From: Pseudomonas sp. EpS/L25
GTDB lineage: Bacteria > Pseudomonadota > Gammaproteobacteria > Pseudomonadales > Pseudomonadaceae
Assembly: GCF_001512295.1 (NCBI RefSeq)
Contig: NZ_LNUP01000015.1
Coordinates: 248,001-312,000 of the forward strand
Length of the DNA stretch: 64,000 nt
Direction: 5' to 3'
Under the pieces are notes generated by a model, which was given only the letters and a program-made list of their open reading frames with translations, did not search any database and had not been told where the DNA came from. This document shows, piece by piece, positions 27,705 to 36,137 of the stretch (the stretch's first letter is position 1; each line of letters starts with the position of its first letter). The translations under genes were made by a program, and so were the position numbers.

Positions 27705-29642
27705 ATGACGCTTTCTCCCAAGCAACGCCTGCCGCTGGCCATCGCCCTGGCGATGGCCCAGGCGGCAACCGCCCAGGCGGCTCCCAATCCCTACAGTGGC
27801 TTCACCGTGTTCGGCGACAGCCTGCTGGATGCCGGGCAATTTCCCGACACCGGGGTCAACGGTGCCAGTCTCAGATTCACCAATAGGGTCGGCCCTAGCT
27901 ACAGCCCTGCGAATGGGGCGGTGACCGGCCCGGTGTCTTCGATCCTGCTCGGCCAGCAGCTGGGCTTCGATGCTCGCACCCTGGATGCCTCGACCTCGGT
28001 GATCAACCGCTTGCTGGGCCTGAGCGATGGCGACAACTGGGCCACGGGCGGTTACACCACGGCGCAGATCCGCGATTCGATCACCGCGGCCAACGGCTCG
28101 GTGGTGGCGGCCAACGGCCTGACCCTGCGCACGCGCGACGGCTATCTGCCGAGCCTGGCCAGCCAGGGCCTGAGCCTGGATCCCAACACCCTGTTCTATA
28201 TCAGCGGCGGTGGTAACGACTTCCTCCAGGGGCTGATCACCTCGCCGGCCACCGCGGCGGCGGCGGCCAATCGCCTGGGTGATGGCGTCGCCGCCCTGCA
28301 ACAGGCCGGCGCTCGCTACCTGGTGGTCTGGCTGCTGCCCGACATCGGCCAGACCCCGGCCCTGGCCGGTTCGCCGCAGCAGGCAGCCACCTCGGCGTTG
28401 AGCCGGGTCTACAACCAGGCCCTGGTCACGCGCCTGGCCGGTATCGATGCCGAGATCATCGGTCTCAACGTGCCGCAGCTGCTCGCCGAGGTGGTGGCAG
28501 ACCCGGCACGCTATGGCCTGGCGACCGAGCAGAATCTCACCGGCACCTGCTTCAGCGGCGACAGCTGTGCGCGCAACACCACCTATGGCCTGGGGGCGGC
28601 CGCGGCCGATCCGAGCAAGCTGCTGTTCAACGACCGGGTCCATCCGACCATCACCGGCCAACGGCTGATCGCCGACTACGCCTATTCGCTGCTGGCGGCG
28701 CCCTGGGAAGTGACCCTGCTGCCGGAGATGGCCCAATCCACGCTGAGGGCGCATCAGGATGGCCTGCACCAGCGCTGGTTGGGCGACTGGCATGCCTGGC
28801 AGCCGCTGGGACGCTGGCAGGGCTACGTGGATACCAGCGGGCGGCGGCTGGACGTCGACGACCAGCACAGCACCGCGGGTGGCGACGGCAACGGCTACAG
28901 CCTGGACCTGGGCGGCAGCTACCGGCTCAGTGAGCAATGGCGGATCGGCGTGGCGGCCGGGGTGGCGCGCCAGCACCTGGAAGCCGGTGCGGCCGATTCC
29001 GACTATCGCCTCAACAGCTACCTGCTCAGCGCCTTCGCCCAGTACCAGGGCGAGCGGCTGTGGGGCGATCTCACCGCCACCGGCGGCCGACTGGACTACG
29101 ATGACCTGCGTCGCCGCTTCGCCCTTGGTCCGACCGTGCGCAGCGAGCAGGGTGACACCGACGGCGATCTGCGCGCCCTCTCGGCGCGCCTCGGCTACGA
29201 CCTCGCGGCGGCCAGCAGTCCCTGGCACTTGAGCCCCTACCTGAGCGCCGACTACGCCCGGGTCCAGGTGGACGGCTATCGCGAGCGCGGCAGCGATGCC
29301 ACGGCGCTGGAATTCGACGACCAGTCGAGCACCTCGCGGCGACTGGGGCTGGGTCTGCAGGGGCGCTGGCAACTCGCACCGGCCACGGCGTTGTTCGCCG
29401 ACCTGGGTCGCGAGCGGGAATTTGCCGACGGCACCCGCGATGTGACCATGCGCCTGAACAGCGTGCCGGGTCTGGACTACACCCTGGACGGCTACCAGCC
29501 CGACAGCGACCGTACCCGCCTGAGTCTGGGCGTGGTCCAGCGGCTGACGCCGGAACTGACCCTGCGCGGTGGCTACAGCTATGCCGGCGCGGGGGATGCC
29601 CATCAGCAGGGGGTGGGCCTGGGCCTATCGCTGGACTTCTAA
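27705..29642 (+). CDS. estA: EstA-type autotransporter esterase
   Basis: 645 aa, the length of P. aeruginosa EstA. A signal peptide (about residues 1-26) is followed by a GDSL passenger: FTVFGDSLLD with Ser39, YISGGGNDF with the oxyanion Asn, and FNDRVHPT with the catalytic Asp/His. The last 270 or so residues form the autotransporter beta-barrel, ending in alternating residues with a terminal Phe (GLGLSLDF). In P. aeruginosa EstA is an outer-membrane esterase affecting rhamnolipid production and motility. ATG 27705 follows CAAGG. A single-gene unit. Confidence 0.93.
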   Translation: MTLSPKQRLPLAIALAMAQAATAQAAPNPYSGFTVFGDSLLDAGQFPDTGVNGASLRFTNRVGPSYSPANGAVTGPVSSILLGQQLGFDARTLDASTSVINRLLGLSDGDNWATGGYTTAQIRDSITAANGSVVAANGLTLRTRDGYLPSLASQGLSLDPNTLFYISGGGNDFLQGLITSPATAAAAANRLGDGVAALQQAGARYLVVWLLPDIGQTPALAGSPQQAATSALSRVYNQALVTRLAGIDAEIIGLNVPQLLAEVVADPARYGLATEQNLTGTCFSGDSCARNTTYGLGAAAADPSKLLFNDRVHPTITGQRLIADYAYSLLAAPWEVTLLPEMAQSTLRAHQDGLHQRWLGDWHAWQPLGRWQGYVDTSGRRLDVDDQHSTAGGDGNGYSLDLGGSYRLSEQWRIGVAAGVARQHLEAGAADSDYRLNSYLLSAFAQYQGERLWGDLTATGGRLDYDDLRRRFALGPTVRSEQGDTDGDLRALSARLGYDLAAASSPWHLSPYLSADYARVQVDGYRERGSDATALEFDDQSSTSRRLGLGLQGRWQLAPATALFADLGREREFADGTRDVTMRLNSVPGLDYTLDGYQPDSDRTRLSLGVVQRLTPELTLRGGYSYAGAGDAHQQGVGLGLSLDF

Positions 29643-29700
29643 GCGCGGTTCAACCCTCGGATGGCCCACTGGCCTTGCGACAGCCGGCCATCCACTTGTG

Positions 29701-32025
29701 CTAGACCCGGTTGAGATCACCTAGCCGTTGGCGCTGCCAGTCGCGCAACTCATCCAGGCGCCGCGGCGGACAGACCAGAAAGCCCTGCAGCAGATCGCAG
29801 CCGGCCTGTTGCAGGCAGAACTGCTTCAGTTCGGTATCCACCCCTTCGGCGATGACCTGGGCGTCGCGGGCATGGCAGAAGGCGACGAGGGCGTCCAGGC
29901 TGGCCTGGTTGCCGGGTTGGCTGAGCCGCTCGACGATCAGGCGGTCGAACTTGATGGTGTCGGCAGGATAGTCGGTGACCTGCTGGATGGAGGTGTAGCC
30001 CACACCGAAATCGTCGATGGCCACGCGAAAGCCCTCGGCGCGCAATTCATGCAGCAGCGCCAGGGTTCGCTCGTTCAATTCGGCGGCGAAGGTCTCGGTG
30101 AACTCCAGCTCCAGGCGGCCTGGATCGACCCCATGGTGACGCACCCGTTCGCAGAGGTAGGGCACGATATCGGCCTGCTCCAGTTGCGCGGACGACAGGT
30201 TGATGGACAGTACCAGGCCGTCGCCCAGCACCTCTTGCAGGGCCGGGTACTCACGGCAGGCCTGGTCCACCACCCAGCGGTCGATCCAGCGAAAATGCCC
30301 CTGGCGTTCGGCGATGGGAATGAACTCAGCCGGGGACACGGCGCCCAGGCGGGGCGAATTCCAGCGCAACAGGGTTTCGGCGGAGCGCACCTGGCCGGTG
30401 CTGTCGACGGCCGGCATGTAGACGAGGTGAAATTCCTCGCTCGGATTCATCTGGCGCAGATGCTCGTCCAGCAGGTCCTGACGGCGTTGGCGCGCTGCCA
30501 GCTCCGCGGTGAAATGCACCAGGCGATTGCCGCCTTCGCTCTTGGCCCGGTTCAGGGCCAGGTCGGCCTGGGCCAGCAGGTCGGCCAGATCCAGCGGGGC
30601 CTCGGGGGCGGCCAGGCCGAGGCTCAGGGTCACGGCATAGCGTCGTTCGCCGACCAGGGTGCCGTTGTCGTAGTGCCGCTGTAGCTGCTCGCCCAGTGCC
30701 AGGGCATCGTCGGCTGCCTTCTGGCCGCGCAGCAGGATGGCGAATTCGTCACCAGCTAGGCGGGTGAGGACCACCTCGTTGCCTTCGCGATAGGGCGCGA
30801 CCGCCAGCTGCGTCTGCTGGGCCACGGCCTGCAGCAGTTCATCACCTACCTCGTGACCGAATCTGTCATTCACCAACTTGAAATGATCCAGCCCGAAGTA
30901 CAGCAGCGCGATGGCACGACCGTCCGGCTTTTCCGCCAGCCAGGACTCGCCCATCAGTTGGAAATAGCGGCGGTTGCCGATCTGGGTGAGGACATCGGTG
31001 CGCAGGGCGGTGCGCAACCGCGCCAGGATGGCCAGGTTGCTGTCGTGCAGGCGCTTCATGTTGGCGCCCAGGTGGCCGATCTCGCCGGGTTCCTCGCTGT
31101 TTTCGAGCGCCTGGCGCTGGCCTTCCAGCACCTCGGTGAGCTGACTGTCCAGCCGGGCGATGGGCCGGGTGATGTAGCGCCTGATCAGGGCCACCAGCAC
31201 CAGGATGCAGGCCAGGGTCACGAGCAGACCGCCGCCGAAGTAGGCGATCGCCAGGTGACGTAGCTGCCGGCTCAACTGCTCGGGGTCCGGGGTCAGGTGG
31301 ACATAGAGATCGGGCGAGAGGCGCTTGACGACGGTGAAGTCGCTGCTCTGGCGGGGCGGTGTGCGGGTGAATGCCGGAGGGGCACCATAGCTCTGCTCCA
31401 GGGCTCGGCGGAGGGCTTCCACACGGTCCGGGCTCACCGCCAGTTGCAGGGTCATCGCCAGGTCGCGCTGGCCTGACAGCGGCGGCCCGGCCGTACTGGG
31501 CAGCAGTGCGGTGGTGGCCACCAGCAGCGGCCGGCCCTGTTCGTCGGTCAGATAGTCGCGCCGCTCCTGGGGGCCGTCCGACTCGCGTACCAGCCGCTCG
31601 AGCAACTGCCGCTGGACGGTGCTCAGTTGGGCGAAGGGGTCGTCGCTGCGTTCGTAGTAGTAGGCCAGGCTGAGATCGGGCCGGGCGATGGTGAGGGAGA
31701 TCCGACTGGGCGCATCGGCGCCGGCCAACTGCCGTATTGCCAATTGCAGCTGGATGCCCAGGGCTTCGTTGCGATAGGGCACGTCGGTCTGGCGCAGGAA
31801 GTTGCCCAGGGCCGCGCTGCTGGATAGCGCATAGAGCAGGTTACGGCTGAAGTGATCGTATTCGCGGTAGGCGCTTTCGAGCGCCGCCAGGTCGTGGTTG
31901 AGGCGCGAGCGTTCGAGGCCGATCACTGCCCCGCGCTGGATCTTGTAGCCCAATCCGACCAAGGTCAGGCTGCAGAGCAGCGCGACCGGCAGGATCAGCA
32001 GCAGGACGCGCCTATTGAGATTCAT
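29701..32025 (-). CDS. Membrane GGDEF/EAL protein, MbaA-like
   Basis: 774 aa. A membrane helix at residues 6-26 is followed by a periplasmic domain of about 240 residues, a second membrane helix (AYFGGGLLVTLACILVLVAL) and a HAMP-like linker. The GGDEF domain has RLAGDEFAILL as its active-site loop. The EAL domain reads ETLLRW in place of EALLRW but keeps INLSSAQL, LELEFTET, DDFGVGYTS, IKFDR and AEGVDT, so c-di-GMP hydrolysis may be intact. Its start overlaps the stop of the upstream PotD-like gene by 14 bases. The pair matches the layout of Vibrio cholerae nspS-mbaA, where the binding protein tells the c-di-GMP enzyme about polyamines. That parallel is inferred from domains and order only. 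Confidence 0.8.
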   Translation of the reverse strand: MNLNRRVLLLILPVALLCSLTLVGLGYKIQRGAVIGLERSRLNHDLAALESAYREYDHFSRNLLYALSSSAALGNFLRQTDVPYRNEALGIQLQLAIRQLAGADAPSRISLTIARPDLSLAYYYERSDDPFAQLSTVQRQLLERLVRESDGPQERRDYLTDEQGRPLLVATTALLPSTAGPPLSGQRDLAMTLQLAVSPDRVEALRRALEQSYGAPPAFTRTPPRQSSDFTVVKRLSPDLYVHLTPDPEQLSRQLRHLAIAYFGGGLLVTLACILVLVALIRRYITRPIARLDSQLTEVLEGQRQALENSEEPGEIGHLGANMKRLHDSNLAILARLRTALRTDVLTQIGNRRYFQLMGESWLAEKPDGRAIALLYFGLDHFKLVNDRFGHEVGDELLQAVAQQTQLAVAPYREGNEVVLTRLAGDEFAILLRGQKAADDALALGEQLQRHYDNGTLVGERRYAVTLSLGLAAPEAPLDLADLLAQADLALNRAKSEGGNRLVHFTAELAARQRRQDLLDEHLRQMNPSEEFHLVYMPAVDSTGQVRSAETLLRWNSPRLGAVSPAEFIPIAERQGHFRWIDRWVVDQACREYPALQEVLGDGLVLSINLSSAQLEQADIVPYLCERVRHHGVDPGRLELEFTETFAAELNERTLALLHELRAEGFRVAIDDFGVGYTSIQQVTDYPADTIKFDRLIVERLSQPGNQASLDALVAFCHARDAQVIAEGVDTELKQFCLQQAGCDLLQGFLVCPPRRLDELRDWQRQRLGDLNRV

Positions 32026-33055
32026 GGCGGCCTACCAAGGCGCTACCGATGCGCTGTCGGGTCTGGAAGGTGTCGGGGGGACCTTCCTGGAAGGTCTGGC
32101 TGCGGGCGAGTACCTCGGCAGGTGGAAACAGGCTGGGATCCTGGCGCAGGTCCGTGGAAAGCAGCCGTACGGCGCCGGCGTTGGCTGTCGCCAGGTGCAG
32201 TTCCGTGGAAGCCAGCAGCGCGTTGCGCGGCTCGTTGAGGAAATCGATGAAGCGCTCGGCAGCAGCCTGGTGCGTGGAGCTGCTGAGTATCGCCACGCAG
32301 TCCACCCACAGCAGACTGCCCTCGTGGGGGGTGACGAAGCGCCAGGGCTGTCCGGGCGTCGCCGCATTGAGCAGGTGCTGATCGCCGCTGTAGCCCAGGG
32401 CCAGGTCGATGTGGTCGCTGTAGGCCGGATTGCGCAGGGCGCTGACCACGTATTGATAGGTCAGCACCGCGGGTGCCTGGGCCTTGAGCAGGTCGAAGCT
32501 GCGCCGGAGCAGCCCGGCATCGTCGCTGTTGATCGCGCCGCCCAGGGTGAGCAGGGGAGCGACCAGCAGGTCGTCGTGATCCTCGAGCATGGCGATGCGG
32601 CCGTGCAGGGCCGGTTCTGGTTGCAGCAGCGCCTGCCAGGAGTCCGGCGGGCGAGTCAGCCGATCGGCGCGGTAGAGCAGGCCCAGGGTGCCCCAGACAT
32701 AGGGCACCGCATAGTCACCGCAACTGCTGCGCCAGCGCGGATCGATCTCGGCCAGATGGGCGATTCGCCGAGAATCGATGCGGGTCAGCAGGCCATCGCG
32801 GCCCAGGCGGGTAGCGCTGACCTCGTTGATCACCACCAGGTCGAGAGCGGCATCGCCGCGCGCCAGGGTGGCATCGCGCACGTCGCTGCTGTCGAAATGG
32901 ATCTCCTGCAGCGGCGGATTGGCCTTGGCCCAGCGTTGCAGCAGGGTGTCGCTGAAATAGCCTTCCCAGGTGTAGAGCCGCAGGGGGTCGGCCACCAGCG
33001 GAAGCGGTAGGCCGACTAGCCAGAGCAGCAACAGCAGCATCCGTCGTGGGCGCAT
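32012..33055 (-). CDS. PotD-like periplasmic binding protein, NspS-like sensor partner
   Basis: 347 aa from the ATG at 33055. The signal peptide MRPRRMLLLLLWLVGLPLPL ends near VADPL, and the mature protein starts LRLYTWEGYFSDTLLQRW, the start typical of spermidine/putrescine-binding proteins. Further family features are DLVVINEVSATRLGRDGLLT, PYVWGTLGLLYR and LLWVDCVAILSSSTH. No ABC permease or ATPase gene lies nearby; the next gene is the GGDEF/EAL membrane protein, overlapping by 14 bases. That points to sensing rather than uptake. The ligand is probably a polyamine but is not shown by sequence alone. Confidence 0.8.
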   Translation of the reverse strand: MRPRRMLLLLLWLVGLPLPLVADPLRLYTWEGYFSDTLLQRWAKANPPLQEIHFDSSDVRDATLARGDAALDLVVINEVSATRLGRDGLLTRIDSRRIAHLAEIDPRWRSSCGDYAVPYVWGTLGLLYRADRLTRPPDSWQALLQPEPALHGRIAMLEDHDDLLVAPLLTLGGAINSDDAGLLRRSFDLLKAQAPAVLTYQYVVSALRNPAYSDHIDLALGYSGDQHLLNAATPGQPWRFVTPHEGSLLWVDCVAILSSSTHQAAAERFIDFLNEPRNALLASTELHLATANAGAVRLLSTDLRQDPSLFPPAEVLARSQTFQEGPPDTFQTRQRIGSALVGRHESQ

Positions 33056-33151
33056 CTTGGTCTTCCAGGCGATAGCGAGCGACAGTCCTGACGGCGCGCG
33101 CCTGGCGTGCACCGTCCTCCCGATAACACTTAGGAGCCTAGACGAACCTGG

Positions 33152-33778
33152 TTAGTTTATCGGCGACGATGTCCGAGCGTGCAGATCGGCTCGGGTGTAA
33201 GGCCGATCACTGCCGGCGGCCAGGGTTCCCAGATCCTGCATCAAGTCGTGGGTGGGCGCGCGCCGCCCGTGCAGCAGCACCAGCGGCAGCAGCAGGCTCG
33301 CCACCAGGACGAGCGTCTGGCGCCGTGGCAGCAGGACCTGGGCCGGCAGCAGGCGCAGGCATAGCGCCGCGACCACCAGGCCGAGCAGGGTGCCGGTGAT
33401 GGCCTCGGACGGCGAGTGATAACCCAGGCGTACTCGTGAGTAGGCCACCAGCACGGCGGCCCCGACGCCTAGCCAGGGAGCCAGGGGTCGCAGGCGACCT
33501 TGCCCGAACAGCAGCCAGGCCAGCACCGGCAAGACGCTGGCGGCCTGCATGGAGTGGCCGCTGAAACCGGTGAAGTCCAGTTCCCGGCTGCCGATGCCCC
33601 AGCCGAAGAAGGCGATCTTGGTCGCGGCGGTGAGCAGGCAGGCCAGGGCGAACAGACCGAACCACAGCAGCAGGGCGCGCAGACCGCTGCCCAGCGCCAG
33701 CCAGAGACCGATGAGCAGGGCGCAGGGCAGCATCACGGCAGCGTCGCCGAAGTTGGTGATGAAGGGCCAGAAACTCAT
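33152..33778 (-). CDS. PAP2-family membrane phosphatase (paralogue A)
   Basis: 208 aa with about five or six membrane spans. It has the PAP2 motifs FTGFSGHSM and SRVRLGYHSPSEAITG. The usual Asp after the second His motif is Glu here, and the KX6RP first motif is not obvious (TKIAFFGWGIG occupies its place). It could dephosphorylate lipid phosphates or undecaprenyl pyrophosphate; activity is uncertain given the altered motifs. A paralogue follows at 33899-34528. Confidence 0.8.
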   Translation of the reverse strand: MSFWPFITNFGDAAVMLPCALLIGLWLALGSGLRALLLWFGLFALACLLTAATKIAFFGWGIGSRELDFTGFSGHSMQAASVLPVLAWLLFGQGRLRPLAPWLGVGAAVLVAYSRVRLGYHSPSEAITGTLLGLVVAALCLRLLPAQVLLPRRQTLVLVASLLLPLVLLHGRRAPTHDLMQDLGTLAAGSDRPYTRADLHARTSSPIN

Positions 33779-33898
33779 GGGCGGGGCTCTCGCTCGAGGC
33801 GCGAAAGAACGCGCCAGGGGACTACGGAGAAGACGAAAGCGTCCATGGTAACGCTGGCATCGCCCCGCCTGCCACCGTCTGGCCCGCGCCTGTCCGCG

Positions 33899-34528
33899 TC
33901 AGTTCTGCAGCGGTGCCACCCCGGCGCGCTGGTGGGCGCGGGTCCAGGGGTTCTGCTCGTCGGCGAACTTCACCGCCAGGCGTTCCAGCACCCGTTGCGT
34001 CGGGGCGTTGGTGCCGTGCAGCAACAACAGCGGCAGGAGCAGCAGGCTGGCGCCCAAGGCCGCCTGGCGGGGCTTGAGGACCACCTCCTGGCCGCGCAGC
34101 AGCCACAGCAGGCTGGCACTCGTGGCGTAGCCAATGGGCAGGCCGGTCACCACTTCGGAGATCGAGTGGTAGCCCAGTACCACCCGCGAGATGGCGATGA
34201 GCAGGGCGCAGACGGCACCCAGGGCGGCGGCAGTCAGGCGCAGCGCGGGGCGTGCCCGGCTGGCCAGCAGCCAGCCGAGGATCGGCAGGATGCCGCCCAC
34301 CAGCATGGAGTGGCCGCTGAAGCCGGTGAAGTCCAGGTGCGGGATACCCAGGCCCCAACCGAAGAAGGCGATCTTGGACAGGGCGACGCTAAGACTCGCG
34401 GCACCGAACAGGAGCAACCACAGCAGCGCCGCCCGCGCCGAGAGCCCGGCCAGCAGCCAGAGCGCGATGAGCAGGGCGCAGGGAAGCATCACCGAAGAAT
34501 CGCCGAAATTGGTGATGAACAGCCACAT
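33899..34528 (-). CDS. PAP2-family membrane phosphatase (paralogue B)
   Basis: 209 aa from ATG 34528 (MWLFITNFGDSSVMLPCALL). It shares the N-terminus FITNFGD..VMLPCALLI, FFGWG and DFTGFSGHSM with paralogue A and has SRVVLGYHSISEVVTG, again with Glu where Asp is usual. The tandem arrangement and shared oddities show a local duplication. Multi-spanning; the active site should face the periplasm as in other members. Confidence 0.8.
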   Translation of the reverse strand: MWLFITNFGDSSVMLPCALLIALWLLAGLSARAALLWLLLFGAASLSVALSKIAFFGWGLGIPHLDFTGFSGHSMLVGGILPILGWLLASRARPALRLTAAALGAVCALLIAISRVVLGYHSISEVVTGLPIGYATSASLLWLLRGQEVVLKPRQAALGASLLLLPLLLLHGTNAPTQRVLERLAVKFADEQNPWTRAHQRAGVAPLQN

Positions 34529-34650
34529 GGATGAACGGACTCCTGAAGCGGACGAGGCATTCTGACCTCCGCACGCCCAGAGGTTGCATGCAGCGTGCCG
34601 AGCTGTGGACTGTCGCAAGAAAACGGCGGGACGTCTTTCGCAGTCCCAGC

Positions 34651-34686
34651 AAAAAGCCCCGGCACCTGAGGTGACCGGGGCTTTTT
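34651..34686. terminator. Bidirectional terminator downstream of metK
   Basis: AAAAAGCCCCGG pairs with CCGGGGCTTTTT, with extra CACC/GGTG pairing inside. A and T runs on both sides make it bidirectional. It is separated from the metK stop by the inverted-repeat element at 34704-34946. Confidence 0.88.
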
Positions 34687-34703
34687 GCCAAGGGGGCGTC
34701 TTA

Positions 34704-34946
34704 GAACCTGTTCACGATCTGCTGCGCGTCGGCCAAACGGCGTTGAAAATGGCCTGGAAGGCCGGTCCCACCTGGGCGGTCCCGTCGCAATGCTCATTTA
34801 CCACTCGTAAACCCGAGCGCGAGTCCGATCCGCTTCCTCAGCCATTTGATTCGCTGGCGCTCACCCTACGGGCCAGCCGTTGGCTGTTACTCCCGTTGGT
34901 CGTTGCGCCTTGTTTGGCTCTAGCTCGCGAGATCGTGAATAGGTTC
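34704..34946 (-). mobile_element. MITE-like inverted-repeat element, copy 1 (243 bp)
   Basis: The ends are GAACCTGTTCACGATCT and, at the right, the complement of GAACCTATTCACGATCT. It is flanked by TTA on both sides (34701-34703 and 34947-34949), a 3-bp TNA target duplication. The right TTA is the TAA stop codon of metK. The interior aligns with the reverse complement of copy 3, plus about 60 extra bases near 34843-34905. No coding capacity. The minus sign marks its orientation relative to copies 2 and 3. Confidence 0.75.

Positions 34947-36137
<1,191 letters not shown>

What the first reader, a model, noticed from the sequence alone, without database searches (positions are those of the whole stretch)
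29701..33055. NspS/MbaA-like pair: polyamine-type binding protein coupled to a c-di-GMP enzyme
Seen: a PotD-like secreted protein with no transporter genes, its stop overlapping by 14 bases a membrane protein with periplasmic, HAMP, GGDEF and EAL domains. Known: in Vibrio cholerae NspS binds norspermidine and signals to MbaA through the periplasm to change c-di-GMP and biofilm. Inference: an equivalent polyamine sensor in this pseudomonad. The AGDEF loop and ETL variant of EAL leave the balance of synthesis and hydrolysis open.
Basis: partly seen in the sequence, partly recalled or inferred. Interest (0 to 1): 0.65.

Follow-up and report, generated by a model that had tools for sequence, protein, structure and literature searches.

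The report
NspS–MbaA polyamine sensor, cyclase half degenerate
This Pseudomonas (P. oryzihabitans group) carries a known kind of two-gene sensor, first studied in the cholera bacterium, in which a secreted polyamine-binding protein controls a membrane enzyme of the biofilm messenger c-di-GMP; here the messenger-making half has lost a key metal-binding residue, so the sensor probably only destroys the messenger.

Summary
nspS (33055-32012) overlaps mbaA (32025-29701) by 14 bases on the minus strand, with no transporter genes alongside. Both proteins align along nearly their whole length with the experimentally studied S. meliloti NspS and MbaA (about 41% and 37% identity). Six of the eight residues modelled to contact norspermidine in V. 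cholerae NspS are kept; D90 becomes N77 and F131 becomes V120. In 13 genomes of the genus, the same 10 carry both genes and the same 3 carry neither.

The pair is already on record: a 2023 paper (PMC9993111) lists nspS-mbaA pairs in P. stutzeri and other Pseudomonas with this same overlap. It is a new member of a known kind.

One detail appears new. In all 10 members of this genus the GGDEF domain has Gly (G378) where PleD has the metal-binding Asp327, reported as essential for cyclase activity. Sinorhizobium and nearly all Stutzerimonas relatives keep Asp there, as do 40 of the 43 GGDEF domains in this genome. The EAL catalytic residues are intact. I infer a polyamine-controlled phosphodiesterase without cyclase activity, unlike the two-way V. 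cholerae switch. The ligand and the protein-protein contact are untested.

The parts
32012..33055 (-). nspS-like gene: secreted PotD-like polyamine-type binding protein, 347 aa
29701..32025 (-). mbaA-like gene: membrane protein with a periplasmic sensor, GGDEF and EAL domains, 774 aa
32012..32025 (-). 14-nt overlap of nspS and mbaA (published as '13 bp' for Pseudomonas; that paper's '3 bp' for S. meliloti is 4 nt in L098)
31240..31950 (-). MbaA periplasmic domain (residues 26-262), predicted Cache/CHASE4-like fold, the likely docking site for NspS
   Evidence: pLDDT 86.5; weak matches to CHASE4 and Cache domains
30892..30894 (-). MbaA codon 378, Gly in place of the first metal-binding Asp of the GGDEF domain (PleD D327)
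30742..30756 (-). AGDEF motif (residues 424-428)
30370..30378 (-). ETL motif (residues 550-552) of the EAL domain; the catalytic Glu550 is kept

Best explanation
The two genes are an NspS-MbaA polyamine-sensing system. NspS is secreted to the periplasm, binds a cationic polyamine, and in one conformation docks on the Cache/CHASE4-like periplasmic domain of MbaA; it does not feed a transporter. Docking is relayed through the membrane and a HAMP-like linker to the GGDEF-EAL module. In this lineage (P. oryzihabitans group) the GGDEF domain has lost a metal-binding aspartate and probably cannot make c-di-GMP, but it may still bind GTP and regulate its neighbour. The EAL domain is intact, so the output is probably on/off control of c-di-GMP breakdown. 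Shown by sequence: homology, gene pairing, most of the pocket, the degenerate cyclase site and the intact EAL site. Inferred: ligand, docking and direction of the response.
For: Nearly full-length homology to the genetically studied S. meliloti pair, about 41% (NspS) and 37% (MbaA). The same 10 of 13 genus members have both genes and the same 3 have neither. The genes are adjacent with a 14-nt overlap across P. oryzihabitans and Stutzerimonas in different surroundings. Predicted V. cholerae NspS contacts W41, D70, Y233, D236, W261 and D263 correspond to W30, D58, Y222, D225, W250 and D252. D159 and D162 match PotD D168 and E171 (the PotD contact list is from my own knowledge). The NspS model matches polyamine-binding proteins first. 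G378 replaces Asp in 10 of 10 genus members; Sm and Shinella keep Asp, and nearly all Stutzerimonas do (one has Glu). 40 of 43 GGDEF domains in the same genome keep the Asp. D327 is reported essential (PMC7288161), and LapD, an inactive relative, has Arg there (PMC3032553). The Lys/Arg at the PleD R446 position is also Gly. EAL residues E550, N609, E641, D671/D672, K692, E727 and Q747 are kept. dN/dS of GGDEF is 0.23 against 0.09 for EAL in this group (Stutzerimonas 0.18 and 0.10), so GGDEF is slightly relaxed but still constrained.
Against: No complex, binding or enzyme data were available. The D90 and F131 contacts are changed (N77, V120), so ligand preference may differ from norspermidine. 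The genome has no carboxynorspermidine decarboxylase above cut-off, so norspermidine is unlikely to be self-made. In V. cholerae an intact SGDEF site is needed for any polyamine response (PMC8079147), so a version without a cyclase may work differently or not at all. The AlphaFold model of NspS is of moderate confidence (pLDDT 71.5), and the fold match for the periplasmic domain is weak.
Confidence: 0.68

Rival explanations
1. A V. cholerae-type bifunctional switch: the AGDEF domain still makes c-di-GMP when ligand-bound NspS docks, and the EAL domain breaks it down otherwise.
For: The MbaA family is bifunctional in V. cholerae (PMC8079147). AGDEF by itself is tolerated: two other AGDEF domains in this genome keep all metal and nucleotide residues (L141, L149). 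E427 and the guanine-binding N and D are intact.
Against: The metal ligand equivalent to PleD D327 is Gly in 10 of 10 genus members, and the R446-position residue is Gly. D327 is reported essential.
Confidence: 0.2
2. An NspS-MbaA pair whose binding protein senses a different ligand (another polyamine, an acetylated polyamine or an amine such as agmatine or GABA), so that it works like NspS-MbaA but is not a norspermidine or spermidine sensor. This overlaps with the best explanation rather than excluding it.
For: Contacts D90 and F131 are changed to N77 and V120, and PotD Y85 aligns with V79. NspC is absent. In S. meliloti the response differs between polyamines (PMC9993111).
Against: The main anionic and aromatic residues are retained, including W30, Y33, D159, D162, Y222, D225, W250 and D252.
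Confidence: 0.35
3. An orphan substrate-binding protein that serves the Pot transporter encoded elsewhere, next to an unrelated c-di-GMP enzyme.
For: The NspS fold is that of PotD, and a Pot-type transporter exists elsewhere in the genome.
Against: The overlap and pairing are conserved across genera in different surroundings, the genes are present or absent together, the transporter has its own two binding proteins, and the pair resembles the studied S. meliloti sensor.
Confidence: 0.05

Closest known systems
Sinorhizobium meliloti NspS-MbaA (smc00991/smc00992; PMC9993111)
   Same: Same two genes in the same order with overlapping ends; about 41% and 37% identity over nearly the full length; same domain layout; NspS without a transporter
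   Different: Sm keeps SGDEF with the metal Asp, a canonical EAL, and all eight predicted contacts; the window has AGDEF with Gly378, ETL, and six of the eight; overlap of 4 nt against 14 nt
Vibrio cholerae NspS-MbaA (VC0704/VC0703)
   Same: Architecture, gene order, overlap, alternative GGDEF and EAL motifs (SGDEF/EVL), six of eight predicted norspermidine contacts
   Different: V. cholerae MbaA needs its SGDEF site for polyamine responses (PMC8079147); here that site is predicted inactive. The V. cholerae sequences could not be fetched, so the comparison rests on published residue numbers and the Sm homologue
Stutzerimonas (P. stutzeri group) nspS-mbaA
   Same: 43-48% identity for NspS, about 45% for MbaA, 14-nt overlap
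   Different: SGDEF, with Asp at the D327 position in nearly all members; EVL (sometimes EAL) instead of ETL; different neighbouring genes
E. coli PotD/PotF and P. aeruginosa SpuD/SpuE
   Same: Fold and much of the polyamine pocket
   Different: They serve ABC transporters; about 23-26% identity in the structural match
Caulobacter CC3396 (PdeA)
   Same: Non-catalytic GGDEF fused to an active EAL domain; proposed analogy for GTP-regulated phosphodiesterase (PMC7288161)
   Different: Not a polyamine sensor; no homology tested

Membership tests
NspS-MbaA polyamine sensor (homologous family) | PotD-like periplasmic binding protein with no transporter genes alongside | tested here: met
NspS-MbaA polyamine sensor (homologous family) | nspS directly upstream of and overlapping mbaA | tested here: met
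   14-nt overlap, conserved in the genus and in Stutzerimonas
NspS-MbaA polyamine sensor (homologous family) | Nearly full-length homology of both proteins to an experimentally studied pair | tested here: met
   S. meliloti Ak57 L098: about 41% and 37%
NspS-MbaA polyamine sensor (homologous family) | MbaA layout: TM, periplasmic domain, TM, HAMP, GGDEF, EAL | tested here: met
   GGDEF and EAL by Pfam; periplasmic fold predicted; TM segments read from sequence; HAMP only by position, not matched by Pfam
NspS-MbaA polyamine sensor (homologous family) | Eight NspS residues predicted to contact norspermidine | tested here: inconclusive
   6 of 8 kept; D90 to N77, F131 to V120; Shinella also departs at both (N, L)
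NspS-MbaA polyamine sensor (homologous family) | Polyamine binding and NspS-MbaA contact | not testable with these tools
   No ligand docking or two-chain prediction available
V. cholerae-type bifunctional (cyclase plus phosphodiesterase) switch | GGDEF catalytic site intact, including the metal Asp equivalent to PleD D327 | tested here: not met
   G378 in 10 of 10 genus members
V. cholerae-type bifunctional (cyclase plus phosphodiesterase) switch | EAL catalytic residues intact | tested here: met

The most novel reading that the evidence does not exclude
In the P. oryzihabitans lineage the NspS-MbaA switch has become one-way: the cyclase half has lost its metal site in all members while the sensor and the phosphodiesterase remain under purifying selection, so external polyamines tune only c-di-GMP breakdown, with the GGDEF domain perhaps kept as a GTP-sensing regulator.
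Probability: 0.6. Interest if true: 0.45.

Novelty: new member of a known kind. Interest (0 to 1): 0.33.

Why it matters
The pair extends a studied polyamine biofilm sensor to the P. oryzihabitans group and offers a natural experiment. In V. cholerae the cyclase site is needed for any polyamine response; here the same kind of sensor persists with that site degenerate in every member. Comparing it with Stutzerimonas or S. meliloti would show directly whether NspS can signal through phosphodiesterase control alone.

Tried and rejected
V. cholerae NspS could not be fetched: one search found no record, and no Vibrio genome is among the control genomes that matched. Its residue numbers from PMC9993111 were therefore mapped through S. 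meliloti, which that paper says keeps all eight. A two-chain complex could not be predicted, because the folding tool takes one chain. No promoter-like site was found in 29550-35000, which is uninformative at this G+C. Considered and rejected: an orphan transporter component (the pairing is conserved); ETL as a catalytic defect (the middle residue is A, V or T across the family); AGDEF as decisive by itself (two other AGDEF domains in this genome are otherwise intact). The NspS/MbaA distance correlation (r about 0.98) is mostly shared ancestry and is not used as evidence of contact. A second PotD-like gene next to a GGDEF gene (C11:362-374 kb) was checked and set aside: the genes do not overlap, and I see no periplasmic domain in the GGDEF protein by eye.

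Full report
Observation. Both genes are present where stated. On the minus strand nspS runs 33055-32012 (347 aa) and mbaA runs 32025-29701 (774 aa), overlapping by 14 nt. Pfam finds solute-binding domains in the first, and GGDEF (343-501) and EAL (523-754) in the second. No transporter gene lies alongside. The tandem PotD-like genes elsewhere in the genome sit next to an ABC ATPase and two permeases.

Where it comes from. The window lies in a 5.4-Mb genome whose closest named relatives are Pseudomonas oryzihabitans and P. rhizoryzae.

Literature. The pair type is known. PMC9993111 describes the S. meliloti system and reports pairs in P. stutzeri and other Pseudomonas with a '13 bp' overlap. 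Its counting is one less than mine: S. meliloti '3 bp' is 4 nt in L098. So the 14-nt overlap here is the published Pseudomonas arrangement. I cannot tell from the text whether P. oryzihabitans is among its unnamed species.

Family membership. tblastn aligns the window proteins with the S. meliloti Ak57 pair at 41% (NspS, alignment length 321) and 37% (MbaA, alignment length 774); that paper gives 32% and 31% between S. meliloti and V. cholerae. In 13 genomes of the genus the same ten have NspS and the MbaA N-terminus, and the same three have neither. In a 298-genome sample of the family, 50 genomes match, nearly all in this genus and one other, the Stutzerimonas genus by the named hits. In 369 Gammaproteobacteria 12 match, and several of these are followed by GGDEF-EAL genes. 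Gene neighbours are metK-PAP2(-PAP2)-nspS-mbaA-esterase-typA in the P. oryzihabitans group; none of these neighbours was found around the Stutzerimonas pairs. So the two-gene unit is what is conserved.

Pocket. PMC9993111 lists eight modelled norspermidine contacts in V. cholerae NspS, all conserved in S. meliloti. Aligned through S. meliloti, the window has W30, D58, Y222, D225, W250 and D252 at six of them, and N77 and V120 in place of D90 and F131. Stutzerimonas has E and L at those two. D159 and D162 align with PotD D168 and E171 (PotD contacts from my own knowledge). Ligand identity remains open. Carboxynorspermidine decarboxylase is absent above cut-off (28.9 bits against 409), so norspermidine is unlikely to be home-made by that route.

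Structures. An AlphaFold model of NspS (pLDDT 71.5) matches polyamine-binding proteins first. The MbaA periplasmic domain (pLDDT 86.5) matches Cache and CHASE4 sensor domains weakly, including the CHASE4 domain of PA2072, which from my own knowledge is another GGDEF-EAL protein.

Enzyme sites. All EAL catalytic residues are present: E550, N609, E641, D671/D672, K692, E727 and Q747. ETL in place of EAL is no defect, because the first residue is the catalytic one and V. cholerae has EVL. In the GGDEF domain, AGDEF, N and D of the nucleotide site, and K are present, but the first metal Asp (PleD D327) is Gly378 in every genus member (for all but one, for the most divergent; full-length relatives). 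Stutzerimonas has Asp in nearly all members (Glu in one, L033), and Sinorhizobium and Shinella have Asp. The residue at the R446 position is also Gly. D327 is reported essential (PMC7288161), and LapD is inactive with Arg there (PMC3032553). dN/dS is 0.23 for GGDEF and 0.09 for EAL in this group, against 0.18 and 0.10 in Stutzerimonas: slightly relaxed, not a pseudogene.

Mechanism. In V. cholerae, norspermidine-bound NspS docks on MbaA and favours cyclase activity; apo or spermidine-bound NspS leaves phosphodiesterase activity (PMC8967002; PMC8079147). By analogy, docking here most likely inhibits or releases the phosphodiesterase, and the GGDEF domain may serve as a GTP-sensing regulator as in Caulobacter CC3396 (PMC7288161). 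The anatomy is shown; docking, ligand and direction are inferred. An alternative, that the system no longer responds to polyamines, cannot be excluded, because the V. cholerae SGDEF-site mutant behaved like a deletion.

Verdict.

Noticed in passing
G000:C11:365615-369199 (L117:3616-7199): A PotD-like binding protein gene lies between what reads like an acetylpolyamine amidohydrolase/HDAC-family gene and an intact GGEEF diguanylate cyclase, with no transporter seen nearby; the cyclase shows no obvious periplasmic domain. Possibly a second polyamine-linked c-di-GMP locus.
   Followed up: partly
window 33152-34618 (-): Tandem PAP2-type phosphatase-like genes directly upstream of nspS. Several P. 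oryzihabitans strains have only one copy, and the three genus members without nspS-mbaA also have a single copy.
   Followed up: partly
L051-L057: Other Gammaproteobacteria have NspS-like proteins next to GGDEF-EAL proteins with a canonical GGDEF and a different N-terminus; this wider set of pairs looks larger than the published census.
   Followed up: no
L160, L161 (G000:C14:220385-220822, G000:C17:13244-13705): Two other GGDEF domains of this genome are degenerate at the metal Asp position (Gly with VGDEF; Thr with ADDAF).
   Followed up: no
window 27705-29642 (+): GDSL-esterase/autotransporter-like gene convergent with mbaA; conserved neighbour in most of the P. oryzihabitans group.
   Followed up: no
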